Source: Patellaria atrata CBS 101060 | Lineage: Eukaryota; Ascomycota; Dothideomycetes; Patellariales; Patellariaceae | Reading direction: 5' to 3' | DNA length: 64,000 bases | Assembly (NCBI GenBank): GCA_010093705.1 | Contig: MU006098.1 | Location: forward strand, 107,981 to 171,980 | In this document: piece by piece, positions 1,202-64,000 of the stretch | How positions within the stretch are numbered: position 1 is the first letter of the stretch | How the letters are laid out: each line of letters starts with the position of its first letter | The notes under the pieces: model-generated | What the model was told of the DNA's origin: nothing | Seen by the model: the letters and a program-made list of their open reading frames with translations, nothing else | The model's database searches: none | Translations under genes and position numbers: made by a program

Positions 1202-2830
1202 ATGCCACTAACACAGAACCTCCAGAAGCTCCGGCAAGAAGGTAGATTACTTATTGCTACTAAGTCGCTTCAAGAAAACTGAATTTCAAGTATCCGGAAG
1301 GCCGCTACATTGTACGATGTTCTAAAGTCTACACTCCGTCGTCGAGTATACGGGGTAACACCTCAGAGCGCGTCTAACTCACGAAAACGAAAGCTACAGC
1401 TATCTAAAGAGCAGGCACTTGTAGAATGGATCCTCGACCTCGACCGATGCGGATTTCCGCCCCATATCATTGACGTACGCCGAATGGCAGACCATTTACT
1501 CGCCGCGCGGGGCCAGACTCCCACACCCGTCGGTAAGAACTGGGTATGCCGCTTTATCAACAACCAGCCAGACCTACAGACAAGATGAAATAGGAAGTTC
1601 CATTCTCAACGCGCGAAATGCGAAGATCGAGACGTATTTCGCGAGTGGTACAAGCGCGTAAATGAGACGCGCCAGAAGTACGGCATCCTAGACGACGATA
1701 GCTACAACTTTGACGAGACTGGATTCATGATGGGTGTATCTGCGACATCGAAAGTCGTTACAAGCTCCGATACTATAGGCCGAGCAATTCTTATACAACC
1801 GGGCAATCGCGAATGGTCGACGGCGATTGAGTGCGTTAATGCGACTGGGTGGGCAATCCCGCCCTTCGTTATCCTTCCAGGAAAGCTCTACCAGTCAAGC
1901 TGGTATCGGGGACTTAGTGACTGGATGCTCGCTGTTAGCGATAATGGCTGGACAACAGTTAAACTAGGGTTTGAATGGATTAAGCACTTTAATAGCTATA
2001 CAAAGTCTTGTACGAAGGGGGTCTACCGTCTACTTATACTTGACGGTCATAGTAGCCACGCGACGCCTGAATTCGACCAATACTGTACGGAAAACAAGAT
2101 AATTACGCTCTGTATACCATCGCATACGTCACATCGTCTTCAGCCGCTTGACGTAAGCTGCTACTCCTCTCTAAAGGTCGCGTACGGTCACGAGGTTCAA
2201 AAGCTCGCCTATTATAGAGTCCCCTATATTGATAAAGAAGACTTCCTAGCAATATATACTAAGGTGCGGCTATCTATCTTTATAGATCAAAATATTAGAA
2301 GCGGATTTCTTTCTACGGGCCTAATGCCGTACGATCCTGAGCGCGTTATATCGTTACTTCCAATCACGAAGACTCCGACTCCACCAAGCACGGCTAATGG
2401 GGAAGCACCCCAATGGACTTCAGAAACGCCATATACTACTACCCAGCTAGAGCAGCAAGCAAAGCTCATACGGGACATCCTTCGGCGCCAGTCACAGAGC
2501 CCTACGAGCCAAGCAATCAATCAACTTGTTAAAGGATGCCAGATGGCGATGCGTTCCGCTACCATACTCGCAAAGGAGAATTCAGAGCTTCGTACGGAAA
2601 ATCAACGCCGAAAACAGAAGCAGCAGCACCGCCGAAGGTATATCGCACATGGAGGGGCTTTACAGGCTCAGCCGGCTCAGCACATAGCTGAGGAGTTGGA
2701 AAATATGGAGCAGGAGGCCGACCAGAGCTGGGCTGATCAGACGCGACAGCGAGCACCACCCACGTGCTCTAACTGTCATAACCAAGGCCACACAAGGCGT
2801 CAATGTACTAGTATCTTAAGTAGCTCTTAA
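1202..2830 (+). pseudogene. Fot1/pogo transposase with two in-frame stops
   Basis: One reading frame from the ATG at 1202 to a TAA at 2828-2830 gives about 542 codons, the usual length for Fot1-type transposases. It is interrupted by TGA codons at about 1280 and at 1586-1588. Domains in order: a helix-turn-helix/CENP-B-like DNA-binding region (about residues 25-130), a DDE_1 catalytic domain with FDETGF, LDGHSSH and LQPLDV holding the three acidic residues, and a C-terminal zinc knuckle CSNCHNQGHTRRQC (CX2CX4HX4C). The second and third acidic residues are 35 apart. Both stops could arise from single transitions, as in RIP (repeat-induced point mutation), though TIR identity argues against heavy mutation. 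As read, no full-length transposase is made, so it could move only with help from another copy. Confidence 0.85.
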
Positions 2831-40243: not shown

Positions 40244-41852
40244 CTACAAAAACCACCTGAAATCCGGGCTCGCCGGCCCATCCCTCAAACGCTCAGTTGG
40301 CACATCCTTCGCCGTCAACTTAACCCCCTGTTCCCTATTCCTCCTCGCGTTATCCAGGACCATGAACGTACCCAACAGAAGCGTGATCACCGCGCCCGTA
40401 GCTCCAAACGCAGCCGTCGTAGCAAGCGCAGGAATATACTTCGGCGCATCCTTATTCTGGAAGATATTGCTACTGACGACGCCCATGAGGTTCGCGAGGG
40501 GCACGCCCACAGAGGTGAGAGTGACGCGACGACCCTCGTGCGCGATGTTGTTGTTATACCAGGTCGACAAGAGCACCGAAGGGGCGGAGGTACCCCAGGT
40601 CATCATGAAGCAGGCGAAGTAGGCGACGTTGAGCTGGTGCTCGACGTCGATGGTCACGTAGATGATGAAGCCGATGAAGGTGAGCAGGAAGCCGAGCGCG
40701 ATGAACGGGAAGCGCAGGCGCATGTAGTCGGAGGTGAAGGCTAAGATAAGCAGGACGACTGCGCCGACGATGTTGGGCGCGACGGTGTAGAGGTTCGTTT
40801 TGATCTTGTCGTAGCCTAGTCGTCCGACGATCTGGGGGAGGAAGAGCGAGACGGATTGGAGGGGGACGCCGAGACAGATTTCGATGCCGAGCCAGGCGTA
40901 GACGGCGGGGATCTTGAAGGCTTTGAGCGCTTCTTTGAGGTCGAACTTTTCGTTGACGATTGAGGAGCTGTCGAGTTGCATGCGGGCGAATGCGATTTTG
41001 CGTTCGTCTTCACTTAGGAATTTTGCCTCGGAGGAAGATTTGGGAAGATACCAATATACGAATAGGGAGACTGTGTACTCATTAGTTCGGTGAGATTCGG
41101 CAATAGTTAGCTGTCTCGACGACTTACAAGAAACCGTGACCGCCCCTTCTATCAGAAACAGATATCTCCATCCTGGCAGACTAGACTCGATCTGGAAGAC
41201 ACCAAAAGCCAAAAGTCCACTGAAGGCGTTGGCGATATTCGAAGCAGCGTAGAAGATTGCTAAGCGTCGAGCAAGCTCACCCCTTCGATAGAATGTGGTA
41301 AGATAGTAGATTACAAGAGGAAAGAAGGCGGATTCAGCCATGCCTAGTTTGAATGTTAAATCGAACCTTGCTGAAAGTGTTATAGAACTCACCCAGGAAC
41401 CATCTCAGCGTCATCATCCCCCCGAAATTCCTCACACTGGCTCCTAGCAGCGTACATGTACCGAAACAGAACATCATGATGGGAAGAACTCTACTCGGAC
41501 CGTACTTCTTCCCCAGCATACCAATAGGAGGTGCAAATATGACGTATGGTACGAAGAACACGCTGAGGATGATGTTATACTGGCCGTCTTTGAAGTGCAA
41601 GTCATCCTCCAAGCTGTCAGTCTTCGCATTCCCGAGATTCCCCTTGTCTAAGGCATTGCAAAGATACATGAAGGCAAGAACGGGCAGAATCCGAAGGTCG
41701 AACTTGAGCACTAGCCGTTTCTCATGTTCGTATGTCGGAATGTAGTTCCCACTCGCCACGAAGCCTGTTTCTGGCGAGGGAGTATTGCTGAGCGAGGATT
41801 TGAGCGAAGCATCTTCCACGCCTCCTTTCGTAATGTCACTTGCGACGCCCAT
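40244..41852 (-). CDS. MFS permease, anion:cation symporter (Dal5-type) family
   Basis: Plasma-membrane permease of the major facilitator superfamily, in the fungal allantoate/nicotinate/tartrate-like group. Exons 41852-41393, 41343-41128 and 41070-40244 encode 500 residues; introns are 49 and 57 nt. The N terminus is soluble (about 45 residues), followed by HEKRLVLKFDLRILPVLAFM and DKGNLGNA, which is typical of this family. The loop 2-3 motif GMLGKKYGPSRVLP and RWFLGMAESAFFP are also typical. There are twelve predicted membrane segments. The central loop (about 225-265) is charged. Substrates in this family are organic anions, including some aromatic acids. A link to the aromatic gene set 7 kb away is possible but unproven. 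Confidence 0.9.
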
Positions 41853-42966
41853 AATGGCAAATCTACTTGTATCCTTTGCTATTCAAGTAGACTGGGGGAA
41901 AAGGAACAGATTAATGATGTCTTAGGATATTCTTTGACCCACAGGTTCAGCAAAACAGCATGACTGTTTTGAAAAGAGGGGTTGACAATTCAGTTGATCA
42001 AGACATAAGACGCCATGTGCGTACGTACTGCTTTATAGATCCTTCGCATGCTGGTAAGACGTAGAGTTCTGGTTACATCTAAACCTAGACTATGCTTAAA
42101 GACGCGAAGAAGCAATATTGAAAAGAGAGATAGAGAGTAAGGGCTAACCTTGAGGTAGCCCTGGGAGAATTCTAAGTACTAGGTATCATTAGGAAAAAGA
42201 GTGTCCCCTTGCTGATGTCGTAGTCCGCTCCTAGGAGAACCACACGGCCTAAGAAACAGATTCTCGACAGAGAATGACAAGTGTAAACGCTTTGATCGGG
42301 ATGCCGATTGGTTACCGCCACCGATCGGGAATGCTAGGGTGATGCATGAAGGGGATCCTTTTGGGTTTTTTGGAGATAAGAGAAAAGAGGAGAATTATAC
42401 TTGAACCCTTACCTGACCTCATCGTATGAGCGCGGGACACATCCTTGGCGTCCATCACCGTTGATACCACCACTTACTGATTGAGCGCCCTGGACATGTG
42501 GCAAATTGATCCTTCTACTCTTAAAAATGATTCTTGGGCACTTGCACAGGAGGGACCACGAACGAGAAAGTGATATGTAAGAACGGGATTCGATGTTCTA
42601 TGTTTCTGGCTGGCTGGTTGAAAGCATGCCTTAGTTGCCCATAGGTCATGCAGACTTCCATAGCCGAGGCTATCAAAGTGGATTGATATTGATACAAACG
42701 GGGGGACTGGGGGCTACAGACGTCCAACAGATAAGAGATCTTGAAAACCATTGGCGCTCACCATGCAACGCCGTACAATGATACTATCCAAGCAGCAGTA
42801 TGTCCACCTTTAAGATACCGAAAACTCCATGTTTGGGTATTCCCTCCATGACGACCCCAGGCGCTTTTGAAACGCCGTTGCTATAGACGTGAAATCAACA
42901 AATGAGATAGTGTAACGTAGGTGGACTATAGTAGGTAGATGTCTGGTAAAACTGCGACCGCTTCCT
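41853..42966. other. Intergenic
   Basis: Promoter of the MFS gene and 3' flank of the Cys-rich coiled-coil gene. Short frames at 42521-42751 and 42810-43139 show no domain. Confidence 0.5.
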
Positions 42967-48840: not shown

Positions 48841-49910
48841 CTACATCAGGAAAGTTGGGGGTAATTCAGGGCCTATCATTATCAGCATGTGCTCATCGGA
48901 AGGTCGTAGTTTTCATTTCTCACTCACCCCATATGTGTAGATTACCGGGACCCGCCTTTGTTCGCGAAGTGGGTGTTGTATCATCAACAAGATCTCCATC
49001 GACATAATGTTCCATCATAAACTTCGAAGGATCCCACCTAATAGAGTCAACAAACGTTCATCAAACTCTCGATTGCTATCACTCACCAGTAATCGAATAT
49101 CTGTGACCCAAGGACATGGCGCCCAATACCCCAAACAAGGTCATACCCCTTTTCTCTCAACCACTGATGTCCAAGACCTTGGATATCGAAATCGTGGACC
49201 TCATAACTGGAATGATGTACGTGAAACTTCGGACCTTCGAAGAAGAAAAAACAGTGGTGGTCTACTTGCTCCTTTCCTCTATCAAGATGCATAAAAGTGG
49301 TTATATCTTCATTCGTGTCGCCATCATACACCAGGTCTGTCGACTTCAAGTTGAAATGCTTCGTATAAAACTCGTACGCCTTCTTGTAGTTCGTCGTACA
49401 GAGGCCGAAGTGACCTAGCTTATGTATCGGTGCCGGGCCATGCTTGAATCGCTGTGTATGGTTGACGGGTCGGTTCTTGTGAGTAGGATAGTTGTAGTCG
49501 AGTTCAGGTAGACTGTCATCGACGCCTTTCTCGCTTTGGCCATAGATCAGATGCCAGGGGCAGTTGTCGATAGGCTCATAGAACGTTACCCGTTTGCCGC
49601 CACCCGGTGCGTCGAGATCCTCAATCTTTGATGCACCCGGTAAGGTTTCTGATGCGCGTTCTAGGTCTTCTAGTGAATCGACCACGAATCCTGCACCGCT
49701 GAATTTACTTTCCGAGCCTTTAAGTGAACAGTACACGAAAGGTTCCTTGCCATAACCCTTATAGTAGGTTCGGTCTTCCTTCTCCTCAGCTACGGTGAAA
49801 CCAAAATCTAGCAGGAACTTGTGGGCCGCTTCATGATCGGCGTGGGTATAATTAATATGGGCGATGCGTTTCAGGGAAATCTTTGGGGGTTCGGTGGCGG
49901 CTGGAGACAT
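48841..49910 (-). CDS. Extradiol ring-cleavage dioxygenase (VOC/glyoxalase superfamily)
   Basis: Predicted Fe(II)-dependent dioxygenase that opens a catechol-type ring next to the hydroxyls. Exons 49910-49087, 49037-48928 and 48872-48841 encode 321 residues; introns are 49 and 55 nt. Two VOC modules: N-terminal (about 12-125, LKRIAHINYTHADHEAAHKF) and C-terminal (about 160-300). The second carries a likely 2-His-1-carboxylate metal site: His167 (KLGHFGL), His233 (HVHHSSYEVHDFD) and Glu284 (FMMEHY). The C terminus WGPELPPTFL fits fungal members. The short last exon is only 32 nt. It is divergent from the FAD monooxygenase gene, fitting a shared promoter and pathway. A non-ring-cleaving VOC enzyme is possible, but the HHSSYEV motif favours an extradiol type. 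Confidence 0.85.
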
Positions 49911-50895
49911 GATGTCAAGATGTTGAAGCTATTTGGGGACAGCTTCTACTGGAATTTCGAAATCAGATTTAACTACCTATCGACGAACACAGCTTATCAT
50001 ATATAGGTTTATAGCAAATGTTCGAGGCCGTGAGGCGACCAAGACGGCAAATGAAGTCTTTCCTTCCGACGGCAACCAAGAAAGCAAGCACTTCGATCTG
50101 GTCAAGTGAGAGGTGGAGAAGAATTGCATTGACGGGCTAATGTGAGAAGAGCTATCTAACTATGCCGGACTAATGTTGACTCTGATAGGGCCGATCATAG
50201 AACGGCTTTTTCTGCTCCGCATTGTTTGATGTGGGGTTGACGCGATGGAAGTGTTCATCATTCCAGTCGCGGGGTCCTCTTGGTCATTTACTCGATCCAG
50301 GTCCTAATCCTTTACCATCCTCTATACCTAGTTCTCATGTTGTGGCTATCTCCTCTCGGTCACGGCTAGCATTCCTTAGTTACTGCGATAAAGTACCGTG
50401 TGCCTGCACACGTCAGTGTACTATCGAGTTCCAGTGAATAATGGATTGATACCGACAGTTATTCTGGCCCAATTATGCTGAGTCCTTCAAACAATCCTGC
50501 TGTCCTGCATAGTAGAGCTGGATACAAACCCAAAGAGACACCGTACAGTGGTTTTAAGCCGGGAGAACCATGACCGGATGGGATATAACACCACTTTCAC
50601 TTGGTTCTGTTTTCCAGTCATGGGTATTGCACGAGTAATCTTCCGGATATGGTACCGATACCGACGTCTCGCAAGAGTAGAATCAGGACGTACCCTTTTA
50701 CGAACATGTTAACCAGGTGCCTCGTTGGAAGCTCCCCTGTTAGAGAGCCGCGAGGGATCGTCATAGGACCTCTACTTTCATGATGATGAGCATACCTCCG
50801 CAGGATCGAAGCTGAAGAACATATAAAATACTTATTTGCTCGAGGAGTAGTTTTTCTGGGGATTTTTCGTACAATCTACTCGCCCGATACTCACC
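49911..50895. promoter_or_regulatory. Divergent promoter region of the dioxygenase and monooxygenase genes
   Basis: 985 bp between two divergent starts, with no gene inside. It is the natural place for a pathway-regulator binding site. I did not identify a clear CGG..CCG palindrome by eye. Confidence 0.45.
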
Positions 50896-52948
50896 ATGTC
50901 TTCCACTGAACAGTTCACCGATGTCTCCACTATGATCGAAGTTGACCACCTCATCATAGGTGCTGGGCCAGCAGGAGCTTCCCTAGCATGTTTTCTCGCG
51001 TCATATGGTGAATACATGTATAAAAGTCAGATTTAACCATCGTACTAAACTTCTAAAGGACTTAAGGGGTTGGTGATATGTGCCGCACCAGGTACAGCAG
51101 AGACACCAAGAGCTCATATTACCAACATGGCAGCATTAGGTACAGTAAATCGCCTCCTAGAATGCTCTCACAGACGGCTGATGGTTAAATTCTAGAGTGT
51201 CTAAGGGATATCGGACTGGAAGAAGAAGTACTAAAGAATGCAACACCCAACGAATGCATGAGCCATACGAGATGGTGCCGGTCAATGGCCGGAGAAGAAT
51301 ATGCGAGAATCTATTCGTGGGGAAATGATCCCAAGCGGAAAGTACGACTTCCACATCCGCCTTTCAAAAGACTATAGGAACTTACTAGAGGATTCTAGGG
51401 CGACTACGATTCGGCAAGTCACTGCACGCACGTCGATATACCGCAAACGATTCTTGAACCAATCCTCGTCCGTAGGGCAACGCATAGCGGGTTCAAATGT
51501 CGCTTTAATACAGTATTTCTTTCTTTCGAACATGAAAAATCTGGCAAGGTTGTAAGCAAACTCCAAGATAACCTTACCGAAGCCGTCTACTACGTACAGT
51601 CCAAATACTTATATGGTTGCGATGGTGCACGGAGCCGTATTACGCGCCAATTGGACTTACCATTGATGAAAAAACCGGGTCAAGGGGTAGCAATGAACGT
51701 TTTAGCAGATGTCGACCTATCCAGGTATTTGAAAGATCGAGTCGGCAACCTCCACTGGGTCCAGACACCTGACGAGGAATACCCTGATTGGGCTTGGAGC
51801 ATAATCGTTCGGATGGTAAAACCCTGGCATGAGTAGGTTCTCTTTTCAGATGGCGTCACCCCGATGCTGAGTGTTCTAGGTGGATGTTCATCGTTCTGCC
51901 CAAACCCGGTACCGAGTTTGACGACTCGTTGACAGAGGACGACTGGATGCCGCAGCTAAGGAAAGCAGTTGGAGACGATTCTCTTCCAATCAAGATACTA
52001 GGCATCTCCAAATGGACCATCAATGAAATAGTAGCCGAGAGCTATTCCGAGGGGAACATGTGAGGGCTCGTTATTCTCTGTCTGCTGAACCTTGATTGAT
52101 CCCTTATTAGATTCTGCCTCGGAGATGCTGTGCATAGGCATCCTCCTTTCAACGGCCTTGGAAGTAACACATGTGTTCAGGATGCTTACAATCTTGCCTG
52201 GAAAATAGCATATGTCGAGAAAGGACTTGCTGATCCCAAGATACTCTCTTCATATTCTGCTGAGCGACAGCCCGTCGGTGTAGGCGTGGTCACTCGCGCT
52301 AATCAAGGTCTTCGTGACCACTTCCCCGTCTGTGAAGCGCTCGGCATGCTCGACGACGACGTCAAAGTCCGCACGCAGAAGTTCAACGAGCTGGCCGAGA
52401 ACTCGCCTGCCGGCGTGGCTCGCAGAGCAGCGTTGCAAGAGGCGGTTTATGGGACTCGTCGTGAATTCCATGGGGTTGGACAGGAGATGAATCAGCGGTA
52501 TGAGTCGAGCGCTGTATACCTTGCTGACGAAGGCTCGCGACCACCCCTACCAGAGGACCCAATTTTAGAGTATCAGATGACTACATACCCGGGAAGCAGG
52601 CTCCCACATGCGTGGTTGAATACGAGAATTCCCGGAAAACGGTTTTCAACACATGATCTTGCAGGTCATAGCCATTTTTGTCTTTTCACGAGTATCGGAG
52701 GGGACGCATGGCGGGAAGCTGGGATGAAAGTAGGTAAGGAGTTGGGTTTGGAAATCAAGACATTCTCAATTGGGTGGAAGCAGGATTATGAAGATGTCTA
52801 TTCGGATTGGACGAGGAGAAAGGAGGTCGAGGAGGATGGAGTGGTGCTCGTTAGACCAGATCGGTTCGTGGCGTGGAGGTCGAAGAGCATGATTGCTAAT
52901 TGTGAGGAAAAGCTGATGCTGGTTATGAAGAGTATACTTTCGATATAG
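50896..52948 (+). CDS. FAD-dependent aromatic monooxygenase (phenol-hydroxylase/2,4-dichlorophenol-hydroxylase type)
   Basis: Group A flavin monooxygenase expected to hydroxylate a phenolic ring with NAD(P)H and O2. Exons 50896-51007, 51059-51139, 51196-51341, 51399-51832, 51880-52059 and 52111-52948 encode 596 residues; introns are 47-57 nt and all frames agree. The Rossmann motif is GAGPAG (residues 22-27). The middle flavin motif is YGCDGARSRITRQL, and the C-terminal FAD motif is GDAVHRHPPFNGLGSNTC. A thioredoxin-like C-terminal domain follows (about 480-596, ending RPDRFVAWRS). This architecture is shared with TfdB and MhpA-like enzymes. The start is fixed by the N-terminal dinucleotide-binding strand. 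It is followed 575 bp downstream by the FAH-family gene in the same direction. Confidence 0.92.
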
Positions 52949-53523
52949 GAGGGCGGTAGTGCGTAATATTCACGACCAATGCTGTAATATTATCTGTTAT
53001 GTTATATACAGATATAGACAGAATAGTAGGTATTTTCAGGGGCAACATGTAGTCATACAGCTACAATGGAGGATCGTGCGTACTCGTACTATAATTCAAC
53101 CTCCAGAACTCATGACTTCTCCTATCCAAACGAATGGATTTCAAAGCAGATAGAAACAACACATGGGGTATACTGCATTTTGAAGCATTACGAATGCATA
53201 CCGCTGGACCATACAGTAAGCTTCGAGAAGCCGGTACCTCTCCCAAGGACAGACGGCAAACTCTCAAGTTATTACACCGAGAACATTAGCCCGGCGGGGG
53301 TCACATCATCACATCTCGTATGGAGCTACGATTCGCGCAGCTCAACCACTATAGCCAACGGTTCTCCCGGCAGTTGTTACGACTCTGGACTTACCCCACG
53401 TCAACTGGAGTAATAGCACGAAAGGACCCTGGTATGATATTTTCCAGTGACATACTTCTAGCAGTTATGTGGGACTTTACTTCTACTGCTCGTACGCCCG
53501 AGTTTGCTTAACTTTTGCCCACC
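52949..53523. other. Intergenic between monooxygenase and FAH-family genes
   Basis: Contains the terminator of one gene and promoter of the next. A 115-codon frame at 53066-53413 shows no domain and is not annotated. Confidence 0.5.
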
Positions 53524-54518
53524 ATGTCGGAGTTCCAAAGACTCATACGGTTCGAAGATGAGAGCGGGAATGTCATCTACGGTGATTTGAACGAGGAGTT
53601 ACCCGCCGCGCAGATTGTGGGTAAGACGGTATCGGTGCTGGACGGGCATGTGCAGTCCGGGTTCACGAAGACGGATAAGAAGGCTACGGTCAAGAAAGTA
53701 GGCTTTCCATGTCTAAAGATGGGTTGGTTGTAACTAGAACTGATCGATTAGCTCCTTTCTCCTCTCCCGAAAGCGCACGCCATCATCTGCGTCGGTCTTA
53801 ACTACGCCCACCATGCTAAGGAAGCAAATGTACCTCACCCTTTCCTCAAATACTCCCCATCCCCCCCCCCCAAAAAAAATATATCACACATACAGCAACA
53901 CAGCAATACAGAATCTAACACACACCCCAGCTCACCGTTCCCCCCTACCCCGTCATATTCACCAAACCCCCCGACGCCCTCGCCGGTCCCCTCGACGAAG
54001 TCCCAGTCCACCCCTCTGCCCAAGAAATGCTCGACTACGAAGGCGAGCTCACAATCATAATCGGTAAAGACGCAAAAAACGTCTCGGAAGCCGACGCGCT
54101 AAACTACATCCTCGGCTACACCTCCGGCAACGACGTGTCGGCGCGAAACTTCCAGCTCCCCGAGGTCTCCGGGGGACAGTTCTGCTACGCCAAATCGTTC
54201 GACGCCTTCGCGCCCATCGGTCCCGCTATCGTTCATCCGTCGCTCGTCCCGGATCCCCAGGGCTTGAAGCTCTGGACGAAGGTTAATGGGGAGGTTAGGC
54301 AGGAGTCCGGCACTAATGATATGATTTGGAGCGTGGCGAAGATCGTGGAACATGTTACTAGGGGCACGACGGTGAGGAAGGGGACGGTGGTTATGACGGG
54401 GACGCCGTCCGGGGTCGGGTTGTTTATGAGTCCGAAGGGGTTCATCAAGGATGGGGATGAGGTTGAGGTTGGGATTGAGGGGGTCGGGAGTATATCTAAT
54501 AAGATTAGGTTTGAGTGA
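53524..54518 (+). CDS. Fumarylacetoacetate-hydrolase-family enzyme
   Basis: Metal-dependent hydrolase/isomerase of the FAH fold, expected to act on a ring-fission product by C-C cleavage, tautomerisation or decarboxylation. Exons 53524-53697, 53752-53829 and 53931-54518 encode 279 residues. The metal site is typical: Glu121 and Glu123 in DYEGEL and Asp152 in GNDVSARNFQ. YAKSFDAFAPIGPAIV and GTPSGVGLFMSPKGF follow as in the family. The second intron (101 nt) holds an 11-C/8-A tract. The size and sequence resemble the HpcE/FAHD1-like branch rather than long FAH of tyrosine catabolism. Its position beside a ring hydroxylase and an extradiol dioxygenase suggests it processes their product. Confidence 0.92.
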
Positions 54519-57760: not shown

Positions 57761-58345
57761 ATGAAGGTTAGTGTCTCCATATCCCCTTTAGTTGCGCCGA
57801 GTTAATATCATATAGTTCTCTACCGCCATCTCTATTGCTCTCACTACCTTCTCACTGGCTCAAGCCAGTCCCATTGAGTTGGAGGAGCGCTCTGGTACTC
57901 CACTCACTCAAGCTCAAGCTGCTAGCCGTCTCACCAATGCCGGTATTTCCTCATACTCCAGCGGAGGCTGCACTACCCGCAGCGTCAAGACCTGCACATC
58001 CTACGAGGGCGTCCTTTCAGGGACTGTTGATGGAGCCATCACGCTTAAAGGTGCATGCGGATGCAGCCTTGTGATCACTGGTGGTACCGAGGTTGGCCAC
58101 GCCGATGGCCCGTATAGTCATTATAAAGGATATAAGTTTGACTTCCGAAAAAACACTGCGTTGGATTCGTATGTGAAGAATTCGTTTACGAGGATTGCGA
58201 ATCGCGGCGATGGGTATCCTCAATGGCAATCAGCAGCAGGCAATATATATTGTGTAAGTGAAATACCTAATCTAGAGTGTCACTATTCACGGCTGATATA
58301 TGAAACTAGGATGAGGGTAATCATTGGGATGTTACTTACTATTAG
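57761..58345 (+). CDS. Small secreted protein with M15-like (peptidoglycan peptidase) motifs
   Basis: Exons 57761-57766, 57816-58253 and 58310-58345 encode 159 residues. The first exon is just ATGAAG; splicing joins MK to a signal peptide (MKFSTAISIALTTFSLAQAS). The mature domain has GGCTTRSVKTCTSYEG, CGCSLVITGGTEVGHADGPY, SHYKGYKFDF and, from the last exon, DEGNHWDVTYY. The pattern SHxxGxxxD plus HW matches the zinc-binding layout of M15/D-Ala-D-Ala peptidases, seen in a family of small secreted fungal proteins. Zinc ligands would be the His of SHYKGY, the Asp of KFDF and the His of NHW. A role against bacterial walls is possible but inferred. Introns are 49 and 56 nt and both keep frame. 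Confidence 0.82.
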
Positions 58346-58865
58346 AACTATATAGAGAATAAATAGTCGAGTACTGTATTTGGATAAGGGCGTAGGAAGA
58401 GAATGGACCAGCCATATACACCTGTATAATAGCACCCTTTCTTTAATCAATATACAACGATACCGTACAGTGACCTGGTGTAGTACAGAGAAAACGTATA
58501 ACTCCACAAATTCTACTCCAACCTAGCAAAATACGAATGATGGCGTGATATTCAAGTATTCACACTATAGGAATTAGGGACCAGAACGAACCACTGACAT
58601 ACCCAAGAGGGCATTGTAATTTATTTATATGCTACATGAATGCCGCACCGCAATCCTGAGTCTGGTATTAAGTAGATATATCGACGTAAACTTACATGTG
58701 GTCGCATAAGGACTTCAGCCACCATTCTCCGCATAGAGTAGATTATGTAGGTTGGATGAAGCACCTGTAGCCTCGGGTAGTTACGTGGCTGCACGTAGTG
58801 CGTCCAGTCTAATGCTGATCGATTGCTCAATACCTTCAACATAAAGGAGACCCTAGGACGTGCAC
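58346..58865. other. Intergenic, tail-to-tail
   Basis: AT-rich; no gene supported. Confidence 0.5.
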
Positions 58866-60116
58866 TTAAGTAAGCGCATCGTGGAATGAGTAGATGCCGT
58901 TGGGGCCATCATTCCATATTATTTCAAGGTACTTTGTGTACTCTTCGCATTGTGCAGCATCTCCTTGGATTACTTCGCTTGAAGGGAGCACAATATATCC
59001 AGGGGGTACATATTTCGCTGCAGATATCCTCTGTTTTCCCCAAATTAGCCAAAATAGCAGCTCACGATTCGGAGGATTTGTGTAAGTATCCATCTCCCCT
59101 CCATGGTGTGGGATCAGTAAAACGCAGTATCACTTAGTGAAGCTAATGCGAAGTGCTCGGCGGCCCTCGGCACGCACCGTGTTCCAGAACTGTCGAGTGA
59201 AAATGTTTTCGATATACGATGGGGGTATTGTCCAGATTACCGTTAATTTCAGGGAATCCCTACGGCGCTGCTGTTGAAAAAGCAGGGCCAGATCCAAGGG
59301 GTTCTTCTCGTCAGGTCCAGGGAAGATCTCTATGAGATCCGACGGCCATGGCTGTAGAGACACAGTGAATATCCCAGTCATTGACCAGAATTTTATCAGT
59401 CATTTTCCAATACCAATCCCCTTTCAAGAACCCCACACCTGCGCATCCAGAGTAGAATTGTTGCGACTCATAACCTGCCTCTCCGAATCCACTCTCCTCG
59501 AAATAACTCTCGTGACTGCCATACACTCGTGACTCACATAGAAAGCTTATAGCATGTGCGAGCTCATGGACAAGAGCCTCAGCTGCTTGAAAGGGATATT
59601 CAACCTCGGTAGGCTCTCCCTTTTCATTGATATGTAATTTCCCGTAGATCCTCGACCCATAGAATATAGTGGAGAGGTAACCCGGAAAGTGCGTAAGACG
59701 AGGAGGCAACAGAGACCTCGAGGGGCCACACTCGGCGGCTTTATTAGAGCTGGGGTCGCATAGGTTCAATGTCATGTAGTCAGCTAGAACATTGAAGACT
59801 TCCATGGTATCTCTCATATCCTGATGAGTAAGGGTTGAATCTTTGCGGTGGTAGCACTGAGTCTTTACAACGTTTTGTCTCTTATCATCTCAGCGCACAA
59901 TCCATTCCCTTCTCCCAAACATCATTGCGTGCTAAAATGACAAGAAACATGATTCTGCAAGTAGTAGTCATGCCAGGCGTAGAGAGGGTTTCCACCTCTG
60001 GCATTCGACGTTCGGAAAGTTCTTCTCAGCGAATATAGAAAGAATAGGATTATCGAGATCGTACTTTGTCGATCAGCACGAACATTTGCTCCAGTACTGG
60101 ATGATGCCGTACTCAT
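58866..60116 (-). pseudogene. Decayed gene for a HELAH-motif (zincin-like) protein
   Basis: A minus-strand coding signal spans about 1.25 kb but no intact model can be drawn. The best part (59817-59311) contains AAEALVHELAHAISFLCESR, with a HExxH-type motif, and EESGFGEAGYESQQFYSG; a later frame gives IPPSYIENIFTRQFW. The order resembles a fungal family of unknown function that I recall having a similar HE-containing motif. Upstream, a coding-like frame (FAEKNFPNVECQRWKPSLRL) is interrupted by several stops within about 100 bp. Downstream the frame changes near 59350 without a good intron. Missed introns could explain some of this, but the number of breaks favours decay. There is no signal peptide in the visible N-terminal part. 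Confidence 0.55.
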
Positions 60117-61452: not shown

Positions 61453-64000
61453 ATGGCGGAGGGTACAGGAAGCGGCGAGAACTCGCCCGCCCCTCGGCCA
61501 TTACTGGCGTGTTACACGTGTAAGAGGTATTGACAATAGGTCATTCTATAGCCAAGGGGACGACGCTAAGAAGAGGTTAGGAGAAAGATCAAGTGGTCCG
61601 TTCATAAAATATTGCGAACTAGTCTGCGCTGTATTGAGACTGAAGCTCGATAGTGATCATGGTCGCCCAGCTTGCTCGCTTTGTGTGAAGACAGAGCAAG
61701 TTTGTGAATATCCTCTGACGTCGGCAAAACCAGGTCCCAAAATTGGTTAGTGTCCAGTGTGTAGATTCCGCTTTACTTGGAATGATATTAAACATGATAC
61801 TATTGTTCATCAGGTGCTCCTCAGAAACGGAAACAACGGCGATTACTGGATGGCTCTGCAAAGCCGACGGATCATACCCAAAGTCCTCCTGAATATCCCC
61901 TTAAGAAACCTCCGTTATCTTCGATTGGTAGTGTGGTTCCACAACAAGATCAGACTGTTCAACCCCTAGCTCAGATCTATGCCTCAGGCACCTCTTCCAC
62001 AACCGGAGTACCTGAGATAAATAGGTCCCCACTCAAGAATGTGACTGTTTCTTCATTTGAGAGAGCGATATCTGATGAGCGTGTACTGTCTCAAATAATG
62101 CACCCCTCTCATGATCCTGTTGAGGAGCATGAGAAGGACTCACTCGATAGCTCCTCTACGGAAAGGATGGACAGCGCTGACCCGGGTACCGTAGTAACAG
62201 GAATGCTTATTGAAGCTTGTAGAACTTTTAGAATGAATCTAGGGAAAGTCCAACTTATGTGAGTAAATTCTCATATGAGATACTGCTATTTTTTTGATCT
62301 AGTCGCGCTGGATTATCGCTAAGAGGGGATCCTTTCATTAATATGGGCCTAGCCACGAATGAAGAAATGCCATCGTTGATATTGTGGTTTTACTACTCAC
62401 TGGAGATATTCTGCTGACTGGCTTGCGCCTGCTAGGATCGATAGATATTTCGAGAATATGACATCCTTCTCTTTGTTTCGTCGACCAGCTTTCGACACAA
62501 AACTCCAAGGGATCAAAACCCAACGTCATGCAGAGGCGCTCCTAGCTGCAATGTTTTCGTTCTCCGCACGTTTCTGTAGTGATGCTGAACTCAGACGGAC
62601 AGGTGATGAGACAATGCCAGCTACCGAATACTTTCACAAGCTTGCGAAGATAATGCTAGACAGTTGTCTGGATAGTTTCGTAGAAGATACACCCCCTTTA
62701 TGTCTGCTACAAGCTTTAATTCTCTTAACCTTCCAACAGTTGATCGACGGAGTGCGAGGGCGAGCTTGGAGATCTCTCGGGACTTGTGTCCGGATTGCCC
62801 ATGAGCATAGCCTACATCTCATTGATCTGGAACGGAGTAAGAAATCTGGTGTTGATCTTGACGTATCGCAATGGATCTTGGATGAAGAGCGGAGAAGAGC
62901 TTGGTGGGTCATCTGGGAATTTGACGTCTTCGCTAGTACAGTCAGGAAACTACCTACAGCTATCGACTGGGCTCAGAATAATACCTGGCTTCCGGTGGAT
63001 GATGAGGCCTGGTATGCCGGAATCTACCGACCAAGTTGCGTTTTGGCAATAGATCCAGCCATCCGATGGAAACAACTAGAGAGCAGTGGAAATCAGAGCG
63101 CTAAAGCGTGGTTTATCGTGGTAAATTCACTCATGCGAAGCGCCCAACTCGTATCATATCCGCAGTTCTTTTCGCATTCCAGTCGGATAATGTTAGACTT
63201 GGAGAGTCAAAGACCATCCGCTGAAGGGATTACTCTATTACCAGAACTCACAGATACCGCTCAAATGGACCTGGATATACTGGCCAACTCACTTTGCTGC
63301 GTCATCATTGCTCTACCACCTGGTTTAGCTTTCAGGGGCGAAGCACTCAACTTCGCTTACTATCAAACCGCTCCAGTTCTTCCGAACTCTTATCAACAAG
63401 CATTTGACACGTACAGTTTGCACATAATGATTCAACTTACGCGCTTTATGATATACCACAACCACGTATCACGCCTCTCATGTAACAACACCTCGGTCTC
63501 TACTCCCGGTTCCTCACAATCACTCGGAACATCGCCCACCATCAATTCGGCGCCACCAAAAACTATCTCACCTTCCGCGCGTGCAGCATGGAATCACTAT
63601 CTTACGGCAGCATCTGAGATTGTATCTCTCCTACGATCATCTCCCCCCTCGCACGTACAACACGTAAATCCCTTTCTCGGAAGCACCATCTGGCTTACCG
63701 CCGCCACCCAGGTCGTATACCGATTTTTCGACCCCCCTGCGCATCAACGCCGAGCAATAGACTCAAATCTGGACCTTCTACGCCTGACCTTCAACCGCTA
63801 CGTAGCCTTCTGGAACATTTCAAAGGCGTTACAGGAGAACTTAGAAGGTGTGGAAAGGAAGCTAGAGCGATTGCGGCGTCACGAGCAGAAAGTCCAGACG
63901 GAGCAGAAGAAGGATGAGCAGGTGCCCTTGGGAATTGATGGAATGATGTATGGAACTGGTACGACTAATTGGACTCCGGGCATGGCTTGGAATCTTAATT
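61453..64000 (+). CDS. Zn2Cys6 fungal-specific transcription factor, 3' end outside window
   Basis: Exons 61453-61526, 61639-61745, 61814-62258 and 62436 to the edge; frame is kept at every junction. The DNA-binding domain begins LLACYTCKR in exon 1 and continues LKLDSDHGRPACSLCVKTEQ in exon 2. Spacing is exactly CX2CX6[C]X6CX2CX6C, but the third position is Ser (AGT) in place of Cys. A basic stretch (KRKQRR), a Ser/Pro linker and the fungal_trans middle homology region follow (from about 215: RYFENMTSFSLFRRPAFD, then LLAAMFSFSARF, RAWRSLGTCVRIAHEHSLHL and DEERRRAWWVIWEFDVFAS). The 177-nt third intron is long. It lies 7 kb from the aromatic gene set and could regulate it, but there is no direct evidence. 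More than 750 residues are visible. Confidence 0.88.

What the first reader, a model, noticed from the sequence alone, without database searches (positions are those of the whole stretch)
48841..54518. Compact aromatic meta-cleavage gene set in a fungus
An extradiol-type VOC dioxygenase, a phenol-hydroxylase-type FAD monooxygenase and an FAH-family hydrolase lie together, the first two divergent. In order they could hydroxylate a phenol, cleave the catechol ring next to the diol and process the ring-fission product. Fungi mostly use intradiol (ortho) cleavage, so a clustered extradiol route is unusual. The substrate is unknown. The nearby Dal5-type permease and Zn2Cys6 regulator could belong but are separated by gene-poor DNA.
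Basis: partly seen in the sequence, partly recalled or inferred. Interest (0 to 1): 0.8.

Follow-up and report, generated by a model that had tools for sequence, protein, structure and literature searches.

The report
Fungal ring-opening gene trio
Three neighbouring genes in a fungus look like a small kit for opening a phenol-type ring beside, rather than between, its hydroxyl groups, a route familiar from bacteria but hardly charted in fungi.

Summary
The trio is real and intact. Spliced models give a 313-aa VOC protein (minus strand), a 596-aa FAD monooxygenase and a 279-aa FAH-family protein. The VOC protein keeps the extradiol metal triad H167/H233/E284, present in 87 of 87 relatives examined; its four NCBIfam hits are all extradiol dioxygenases, each far below cut-off. 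The monooxygenase is closest to 2-hydroxybiphenyl and dichlorophenol hydroxylases. Linkage recurs in bacteria: of 72 relatives' loci with at least 5 kb on both sides, an FAH gene lies within 5 kb in 61 and both partners in 40. One other fungal contig, filed in a bacterial MAG, has a sister VOC gene, FAD monooxygenases and a Zn2Cys6 regulator whose best match in this genome is the window's regulator, but no intact FAH was found there. Best reading: a fungal form of a bacterial hydroxylase, extradiol, FAH-hydrolase cassette (published analogue hcdABC). Activity, substrate and the FAH step are inferred. No fungal genome collection was searchable, so synteny in relatives is largely untested. The permease has no support as a member.

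The parts
48920..49910 (-). VOC-type extradiol dioxygenase gene, 313 aa, two exons (49910-49087 and 49037-48920); metal ligands H167, H233, E284
   Evidence: gene model; Pfam; NCBIfam; PDB alignments; ligand counts
50896..52948 (+). HbpA/TfdB-like FAD aromatic hydroxylase gene, 596 aa, six exons
   Evidence: gene model; Pfam; PDB sequence match
53524..54518 (+). FAH-family hydrolase/isomerase gene, 279 aa, three exons
   Evidence: gene model; Pfam; PDB sequence match; site motifs located
49911..50895 (.). Divergent intergenic region of VOC and FAD genes, 985 bp, probable shared control region (inferred)
   Evidence: one 12-mer shared with the FAH upstream region
61453..64000 (+). Zn2Cys6/Fungal_trans regulator gene, runs out of the window; tentative member. 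Start codon read by eye
   Evidence: Fungal_trans; frames; best match in this genome to the regulator of the other fungal VOC locus

Best explanation
The trio is a compact catabolic cassette of the bacterial hydroxylase, type I extradiol dioxygenase, FAH-hydrolase type, working in a fungus. The HbpA/TfdB-like flavoenzyme uses NAD(P)H and O2 to put a hydroxyl next to an existing one on a substituted phenol or resorcinol; the VOC enzyme, with a divalent metal held by H167, H233 and E284, cleaves the ring beside the diol; the FAH enzyme hydrolyses (or first isomerises) the keto-acid product into small acids. Because the FAH protein is of the HpcE/acylpyruvase branch and none of the neighbouring ORFs scanned is an aldehyde dehydrogenase or alpha/beta hydrolase, the ring-fission product is most likely a beta-diketo acid, that is, the cleaved ring probably bears a third hydroxyl. 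Shown here: intact genes, families, ligands, linkage across bacteria. Inferred: activity, order, substrate class, regulator role.
For: Intact models and families. VOC: its four NCBIfam hits are HpaD, BphC, catechol 2,3-dioxygenase and HsaC; ligands kept in 87 of 87 relatives. FAD: full-length HbpA and TfdB matches. FAH: matches HpcE, FAHD1 and other FAH proteins. Linkage: in 72 of 87 VOC loci with at least 5 kb each side, FAH within 500 bp in 53, within 5 kb in 61, FAD monooxygenase within 5 kb in 42, both in 40; in the 39 of these outside Pseudomonas 21, 28, 21 and 19. Four of seven plasmid VOC loci looked up are annotated with all three families (yes; no; unannotated). One Pseudomonas ORF joins a PF00903 VOC domain and an HbpA-type monooxygenase in one frame (L036 1483-4239). 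Twelve neighbouring ORFs between 44.8 and 59.9 kb gave no Pfam match. Published analogue: hcdABC, with FAD hydroxylase, extradiol enzyme and FAA-family hydrolase acting through a trihydroxyphenyl intermediate (PMC6222606, passages and section 2.4 read).
Against: No activity data and no structure (jobs never ran). VOC scores lie far below the curated cut-offs of every named extradiol family (at most 53 bits against 320-450), so substrate transfer is unsafe; its solved-structure matches to BphC and HPCD are weak (E 0.006 and 0.07-0.09). Most VOC-linked bacterial monooxygenases are MhpA-like, 24-30% to the window's FAD protein over long stretches; the close HbpA type (43%) is in two loci, L036 and L037. 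The FAH tree does not place the window FAH with VOC-linked FAHs. Nine of 72 loci have neither partner within 5 kb. The second fungus has only a 26-aa FAH-like scrap beside its VOC gene (HMM E 0.013) and its monooxygenases are distant (28-34%). Neighbouring ORFs were scanned without splicing, so a small split gene could be missed.
Confidence: 0.6

Rival explanations
1. The module does cut a ring, but to detoxify or tailor a plant, lichen or own phenolic (polyketide) rather than to feed on it.
For: Fungal extradiol cleavage has been discussed as detoxification without full metabolism (PMC8896014, passages); no transporter or lower-pathway gene was recognised beside the trio.
Against: The FAH partner and its tight linkage in bacteria suit breakdown to central metabolites; no polyketide synthase or other biosynthetic gene was met among the ORFs scanned, though most of the window was not scanned with splicing.
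Confidence: 0.2
2. The functional unit is VOC, FAD monooxygenase and regulator; the FAH gene is a chance neighbour or serves another pathway.
For: The other fungal locus keeps VOC, FAD monooxygenases and regulator without an intact FAH in about 31 kb; the FAH tree is unresolved.
Against: FAH is the partner most often beside this VOC family in bacteria (61 of 72 within 5 kb); the genome has only three PF01557 genes.
Confidence: 0.12
3. The VOC enzyme opens a heteroaromatic or amino-substituted ring rather than a carbocyclic catechol.
For: Relatives in Streptomyces and Gemmobacter lie with RidA, cupin, RraA-annotated, YciI and xanthine-dehydrogenase-type genes.
Against: The window FAD protein resembles hydroxylases of carbocyclic phenols, and the closest VOC relatives are not those two.
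Confidence: 0.08

Closest known systems
hcdABC of Pseudomonas mandelii 7HK4 (PMC6222606, passages and section 2.4 read)
   Same: FAD class A hydroxylase, extradiol dioxygenase and FAA-family hydrolase as one three-gene unit; trihydroxylated ring intermediate.
   Different: Bacterial same-strand operon; HcdA described as functionally like OhpB, MhpA and HppA; its sequences were not held here, so homology to the window proteins was not measured.
Bacterial VOC/FAH/FAD-monooxygenase loci, e.g. Burkholderia multivorans, Sphingopyxis, Microvirga, Prescottella, Pseudomonas, Alcanivorax (L019-L021, L023, L038, L057 and others)
   Same: VOC protein of the same subfamily (34-40% identity; shared GRHxLGSQIFDYW...EHYxDGD signature) with an FAH gene beside it and often an FAD_binding_3 monooxygenase.
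   Different: Monooxygenase mostly MhpA-like; extra genes such as acyl-CoA synthetase and TetR regulators.
2-hydroxybiphenyl 3-monooxygenase HbpA and dichlorophenol hydroxylase TfdB
   Same: Full-length matches, E 1e-121 and 3e-115; 43-47% identity to the best plasmid-borne relatives, tfdB among them.
   Different: Substrate pocket not modelled; the hbp operon uses an alpha/beta hydrolase (recalled), not an FAH enzyme.
Fungal CDO3-type extradiol dioxygenase (PMC8896014, passages)
   Same: Extradiol cleavage in a fungus.
   Different: LigB class III family, not VOC; one LigB gene exists elsewhere in this genome.
kpi cluster for 4-hydroxypyridine in Arthrobacter (PMC7356986, passages)
   Same: Flavin monooxygenase, extradiol cleavage, and an FAH-family protein proposed for the acylpyruvate end step.
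   Different: Ring opener has an amidohydrolase fold; heteroaromatic substrate.

Membership tests
Type I (VOC) extradiol dioxygenase | 2-His-1-Glu metal ligands in the C-terminal module | tested here: met
   H167, H233, E284 fall on the BphC (1han) ligands (ligand roles recalled) and are kept in 87 of 87 relatives
Type I (VOC) extradiol dioxygenase | Second-sphere His/His/Tyr | tested here: met
   H219 and H265 in 87 of 87, Y274 in 85 of 87; roles recalled
Named extradiol equivalogs (HpaD, BphC, catechol 2,3-dioxygenase, HsaC) | Score over the curated cut-off | tested here: not met
   52.9, 52.3, 46.4 and 20.9 bits against 321, 366, 320 and 450
Type I (VOC) extradiol dioxygenase | Ring cleavage with Fe(II) or Mn(II) | not testable with these tools
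   needs an enzyme assay
HbpA/TfdB class A aromatic hydroxylases | FAD_binding_3 plus ring-hydroxylase C-terminal domain, full-length similarity | tested here: met
   PF01494 and PF21274; HbpA E 1e-121 over residues 11-594
FAH superfamily, acylpyruvase/HpcE branch | PF01557 domain with acidic metal site and catalytic His/Glu | tested here: met
   E 2e-69; motifs NYAHHAKE, YEGEL, GNDVSAR, CYAKSF located; residue roles recalled
HpaG/HpcE and other FAH equivalogs | Score over the curated cut-off | tested here: not met
   HpaG C-terminal 169 bits against 276; didehydro-deoxy-rhamnonate hydrolase 184.5 against 500
hcdABC-type cassette | Hydroxylase, extradiol and FAH genes side by side | tested here: met
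   divergent arrangement, not a same-strand operon
hcdABC-type cassette | Homology of each protein to HcdA, HcdB, HcdC | not tested
   those sequences were not fetched
Conserved fungal gene cluster | Same genes linked in other fungi | tested here: inconclusive
   one fungal contig (L027): VOC, FAD monooxygenases and regulator yes, intact FAH no

The most novel reading that the evidence does not exclude
Fungi possess a whole meta-cleavage mini-pathway built on a VOC-class extradiol enzyme with its own Zn2Cys6 regulator, acting on trihydroxylated rings; it has been overlooked because searches for fungal ring-opening enzymes used other families. In one study seventeen A. niger genes were chosen by PF00775, PF02900 and PF04444, and a strain lacking all of them still grew on gallic acid (PMC10512348, passages).
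Probability: 0.35. Interest if true: 0.75.

Novelty: new variant of a known kind. Interest (0 to 1): 0.56.

Why it matters
[quoted passage not shown] A linked hydroxylase, VOC extradiol enzyme and FAH protein gives a concrete three-gene candidate that can be expressed and assayed, and shows that a domain list without the VOC family can miss ring-opening enzymes.

Tried and rejected
Rejected: a glyoxalase-like, non-ring-cleaving VOC (profiles, ligands). Rejected: the FAD gene as a pseudogene; its broken frames are explained by five short introns. Thought unlikely: recent transfer from a bacterium; the best identities seen are 40% (VOC), 47% (FAD) and about 45% (FAH), and the genes carry introns. 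Considered: the Dal5-type permease (two MFS ORFs, 40244-41882) as a member; about 7 kb off with other ORFs between, no support.

Led nowhere: the single-sequence scan of genome contigs and two scans of viral contigs confirmed no relative. Shared regulator sites: one 12-mer shared by the VOC/FAD and FAH upstream regions; a similar site near the regulator falls in what I read as its coding sequence. The FAH tree left the window FAH unresolved. No window ORF matched the further 14 kb of the other fungal contig. None of the paper listings I saw reports this trio in a fungus (ten searches; open-licence PMC papers only; six of the listings (22 and the shorter ones excepted) showed only the top of a longer list, e.g. 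15 of 980). The Fusarium FDB paper (PMC4726666) holds none of the five terms looked for.
Full report
What is there. The window lies in a 28.3-Mb genome of 46 contigs; short introns and fungal-type domains such as Fungal_trans show that it is a fungus. Splicing by hand gives three intact genes: VOC (49910 to 48920, minus, 313 aa), FAD monooxygenase (50896-52948, plus, 596 aa) and FAH (53524-54518, plus, 279 aa). Pfam assigns them to the glyoxalase/dioxygenase superfamily, FAD_binding_3 plus the aromatic-ring hydroxylase C-terminal domain, and FAA_hydrolase. No transcript data were available.

Is the VOC protein a ring-cleaving enzyme? Its NCBIfam hits at E 0.01 are four extradiol families and nothing else: HpaD (3e-14), BphC (5e-14), catechol 2,3-dioxygenase (3e-12), HsaC (2e-4); all are far under the curated cut-offs, so it is none of these exact enzymes. 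Against solved structures the best match is an entry named Glyoxalase/bleomycin resistance protein/dioxygenase (3b59, 5e-10), then another of that name (23al, 2e-4), BphC (1han, 0.006) and homoprotocatechuate 2,3-dioxygenases (0.07-0.09). In the BphC alignment H167, H233 and E284 fall on its metal ligands (ligand roles recalled). Aligned with 87 relatives, all three are invariant, as are H218, H219 and H265; Y274 is kept in 85. A structure could not be predicted.

The partners. The FAD protein matches 2-hydroxybiphenyl 3-monooxygenase over its whole length (1e-121) and 2,4-dichlorophenol 6-monooxygenase (3e-115); yeast phenol hydroxylase is far weaker (7e-15). The best plasmid relatives reach 42-47% identity, tfdB among them. 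The FAH protein has its best whole-sequence score with HpcE, which has two such domains; the best single-domain match is a protein called only FAH family (8sky), and FAHD1 is further down. It carries the motifs NYAHHAKE, YEGEL, GNDVSAR and CYAKSF that hold the usual site residues (roles recalled). In this genome the VOC search finds one gene, PF01557 has three, PF01494 about fifteen loci (my count), with one intradiol dioxygenase and one LigB gene.

Linkage elsewhere. tblastn of the VOC protein finds 151 plasmid records, best about 36% identity over the full length. Of seven such loci looked up, four are annotated with an FAD hydroxylase, VOC and FAH together: Burkholderia multivorans, Prescottella equi, Microvirga ossetica, Sphingopyxis granuli. 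Streptomyces NBC_00525 has an HpaB-like hydroxylase and its FAH gene about 7 kb off; Gemmobacter has FAH about 4 kb off and no such hydroxylase; one is unannotated. I examined these 80 plus the seven plasmid loci. In the 72 of 87 with at least 5 kb on both sides of the VOC gene, an FAH gene lies within 500 bp in 53 and within 5 kb in 61; all 54 within 1 kb are on the VOC strand; an FAD monooxygenase lies within 5 kb in 42; both in 40; neither in 9. If FAH genes fell anywhere in the flanks, about one in sixteen of the nearest ones would lie within 500 bp; 53 of 62 do. Thirty-three of the 72 are Pseudomonas; in the other 39 the figures are 21, 28, 21 and 19. The loci were picked for likeness to the window VOC, not at random. 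Most linked monooxygenases are MhpA-like, 24-30% to the window's over long stretches; the close HbpA type (43%) is in L036 and L037. In L036 one ORF joins a VOC domain to an HbpA-type monooxygenase.

A second fungus. Locus L027, filed under a Deltaproteobacteria MAG, carries a Zn2Cys6 regulator and a VOC gene whose match needs two introns (one with a standard GTATGT donor, one weaker), so it is fungal. Its VOC protein is the window VOC's sister with 100/99 support in a tree of 88 rows (the L027 branch is long, and the root is arbitrary). Two FAD_binding_3 genes follow it, the nearer match 28-34% to the window's FAD protein. Its regulator's best match in the window genome is the regulator 7 kb from the trio, 107 bits against 73 for the next. 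No intact FAH was found in about 31 kb of that contig, only a 26-residue FAH-like scrap beside the VOC gene (HMM E 0.013). This supports a VOC, monooxygenase and regulator core in two fungi and speaks against a strictly fixed trio.

How it most likely works. Flavin hydroxylation of a phenol or resorcinol, metal-dependent cleavage beside the diol, FAH-type hydrolysis. This logic has a published bacterial case: HcdA makes a trihydroxyphenyl acid, HcdB cleaves it to a dihydroxy-oxo-dienedioic acid, and HcdC, a 31.2-kDa FAA-family protein, is the putative hydrolase of that product (PMC6222606, passages and section 2.4). One section of that paper places HcdB in the superfamily with type I enzymes while a clipped passage of the discussion mentions class II; I did not resolve this. 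A similar division of labour with another ring-opening fold is described for 4-hydroxypyridine (PMC7356986, passages). Twelve ORFs around the trio (44.8-59.9 kb) gave no Pfam match, so no aldehyde dehydrogenase or alpha/beta hydrolase was recognised there; they were scanned unspliced. For the window, every step beyond family, ligands and linkage is inference, and the substrate is unknown.

What is known in fungi. Passages read: only intradiol cleavage described in fungi, and seventeen A. niger ring-cleavage candidates chosen by PF00775, PF02900 and PF04444 deleted without loss of growth on gallic acid (PMC10512348); meta-cleavage pathway not characterised in fungi, the extradiol enzyme there being LigB class III with ring-cleaving activity in vitro (PMC8896014); extradiol enzymes less common in fungi (PMC12388069). 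Against novelty: gentisate is described as cleaved extradiol (PMC8283699); a Penicillium transcriptome proposes extradiol dioxygenases and a phenol 2-monooxygenase in paracetamol breakdown (PMC10146002, passages); and tables for Scedosporium list genes named biphenyl-2,3-diol 1,2-dioxygenase, trihydroxytoluene oxygenase and 2,4-dichlorophenol 6-monooxygenase (PMC5716253). So single relatives are probably annotated in other ascomycetes. I saw no report of the trio as a unit in the listings of ten paper searches of open-licence literature, several of which showed only the top of a longer list.

Verdict. Observation confirmed, interpretation partly supported and sharpened. New variant of a known kind: an intron-bearing, divergently arranged fungal form of a bacterial cassette, with a VOC-class extradiol enzyme.

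Noticed in passing
L027 (NYXK01000232.1 19034-36077): A contig filed under a Deltaproteobacteria MAG is fungal: Zn_clus and Fungal_trans domains and intron-split genes.
   Followed up: partly
L027 7602-7679, minus: A 26-residue FAH-like fragment (50% to the window FAH, HMM E 0.013) beside the second fungal VOC gene; possibly a decayed FAH gene, possibly chance.
   Followed up: partly
window 50558-50569 and 53360-53371: A 12-mer, GCCGGGAGAACC, is shared by the VOC/FAD intergenic region and, in reverse, the FAH upstream region; its 11-mers occur only there in the window. About 0.07 such sharings expected by my estimate; weak.
   Followed up: partly
L036 1483-4239, minus: One 919-aa Pseudomonas ORF carries a VOC domain and an HbpA-type FAD monooxygenase, next to a second FAH gene.
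   Followed up: no
L022 and L024: VOC relatives lie in clusters with RidA, cupin, YciI and xanthine-dehydrogenase-type genes, suggesting that the family may also open heteroaromatic or amino-substituted rings.
   Followed up: no
window 1589-2830, plus: A DDE_1 transposase-like ORF (PF03184, E 1e-28).
   Followed up: no
window 57816-58355 and 59311-59889: Two ORFs without Pfam match between the trio and the regulator; the second shows an HExxH motif, HELAH (by eye).
   Followed up: no
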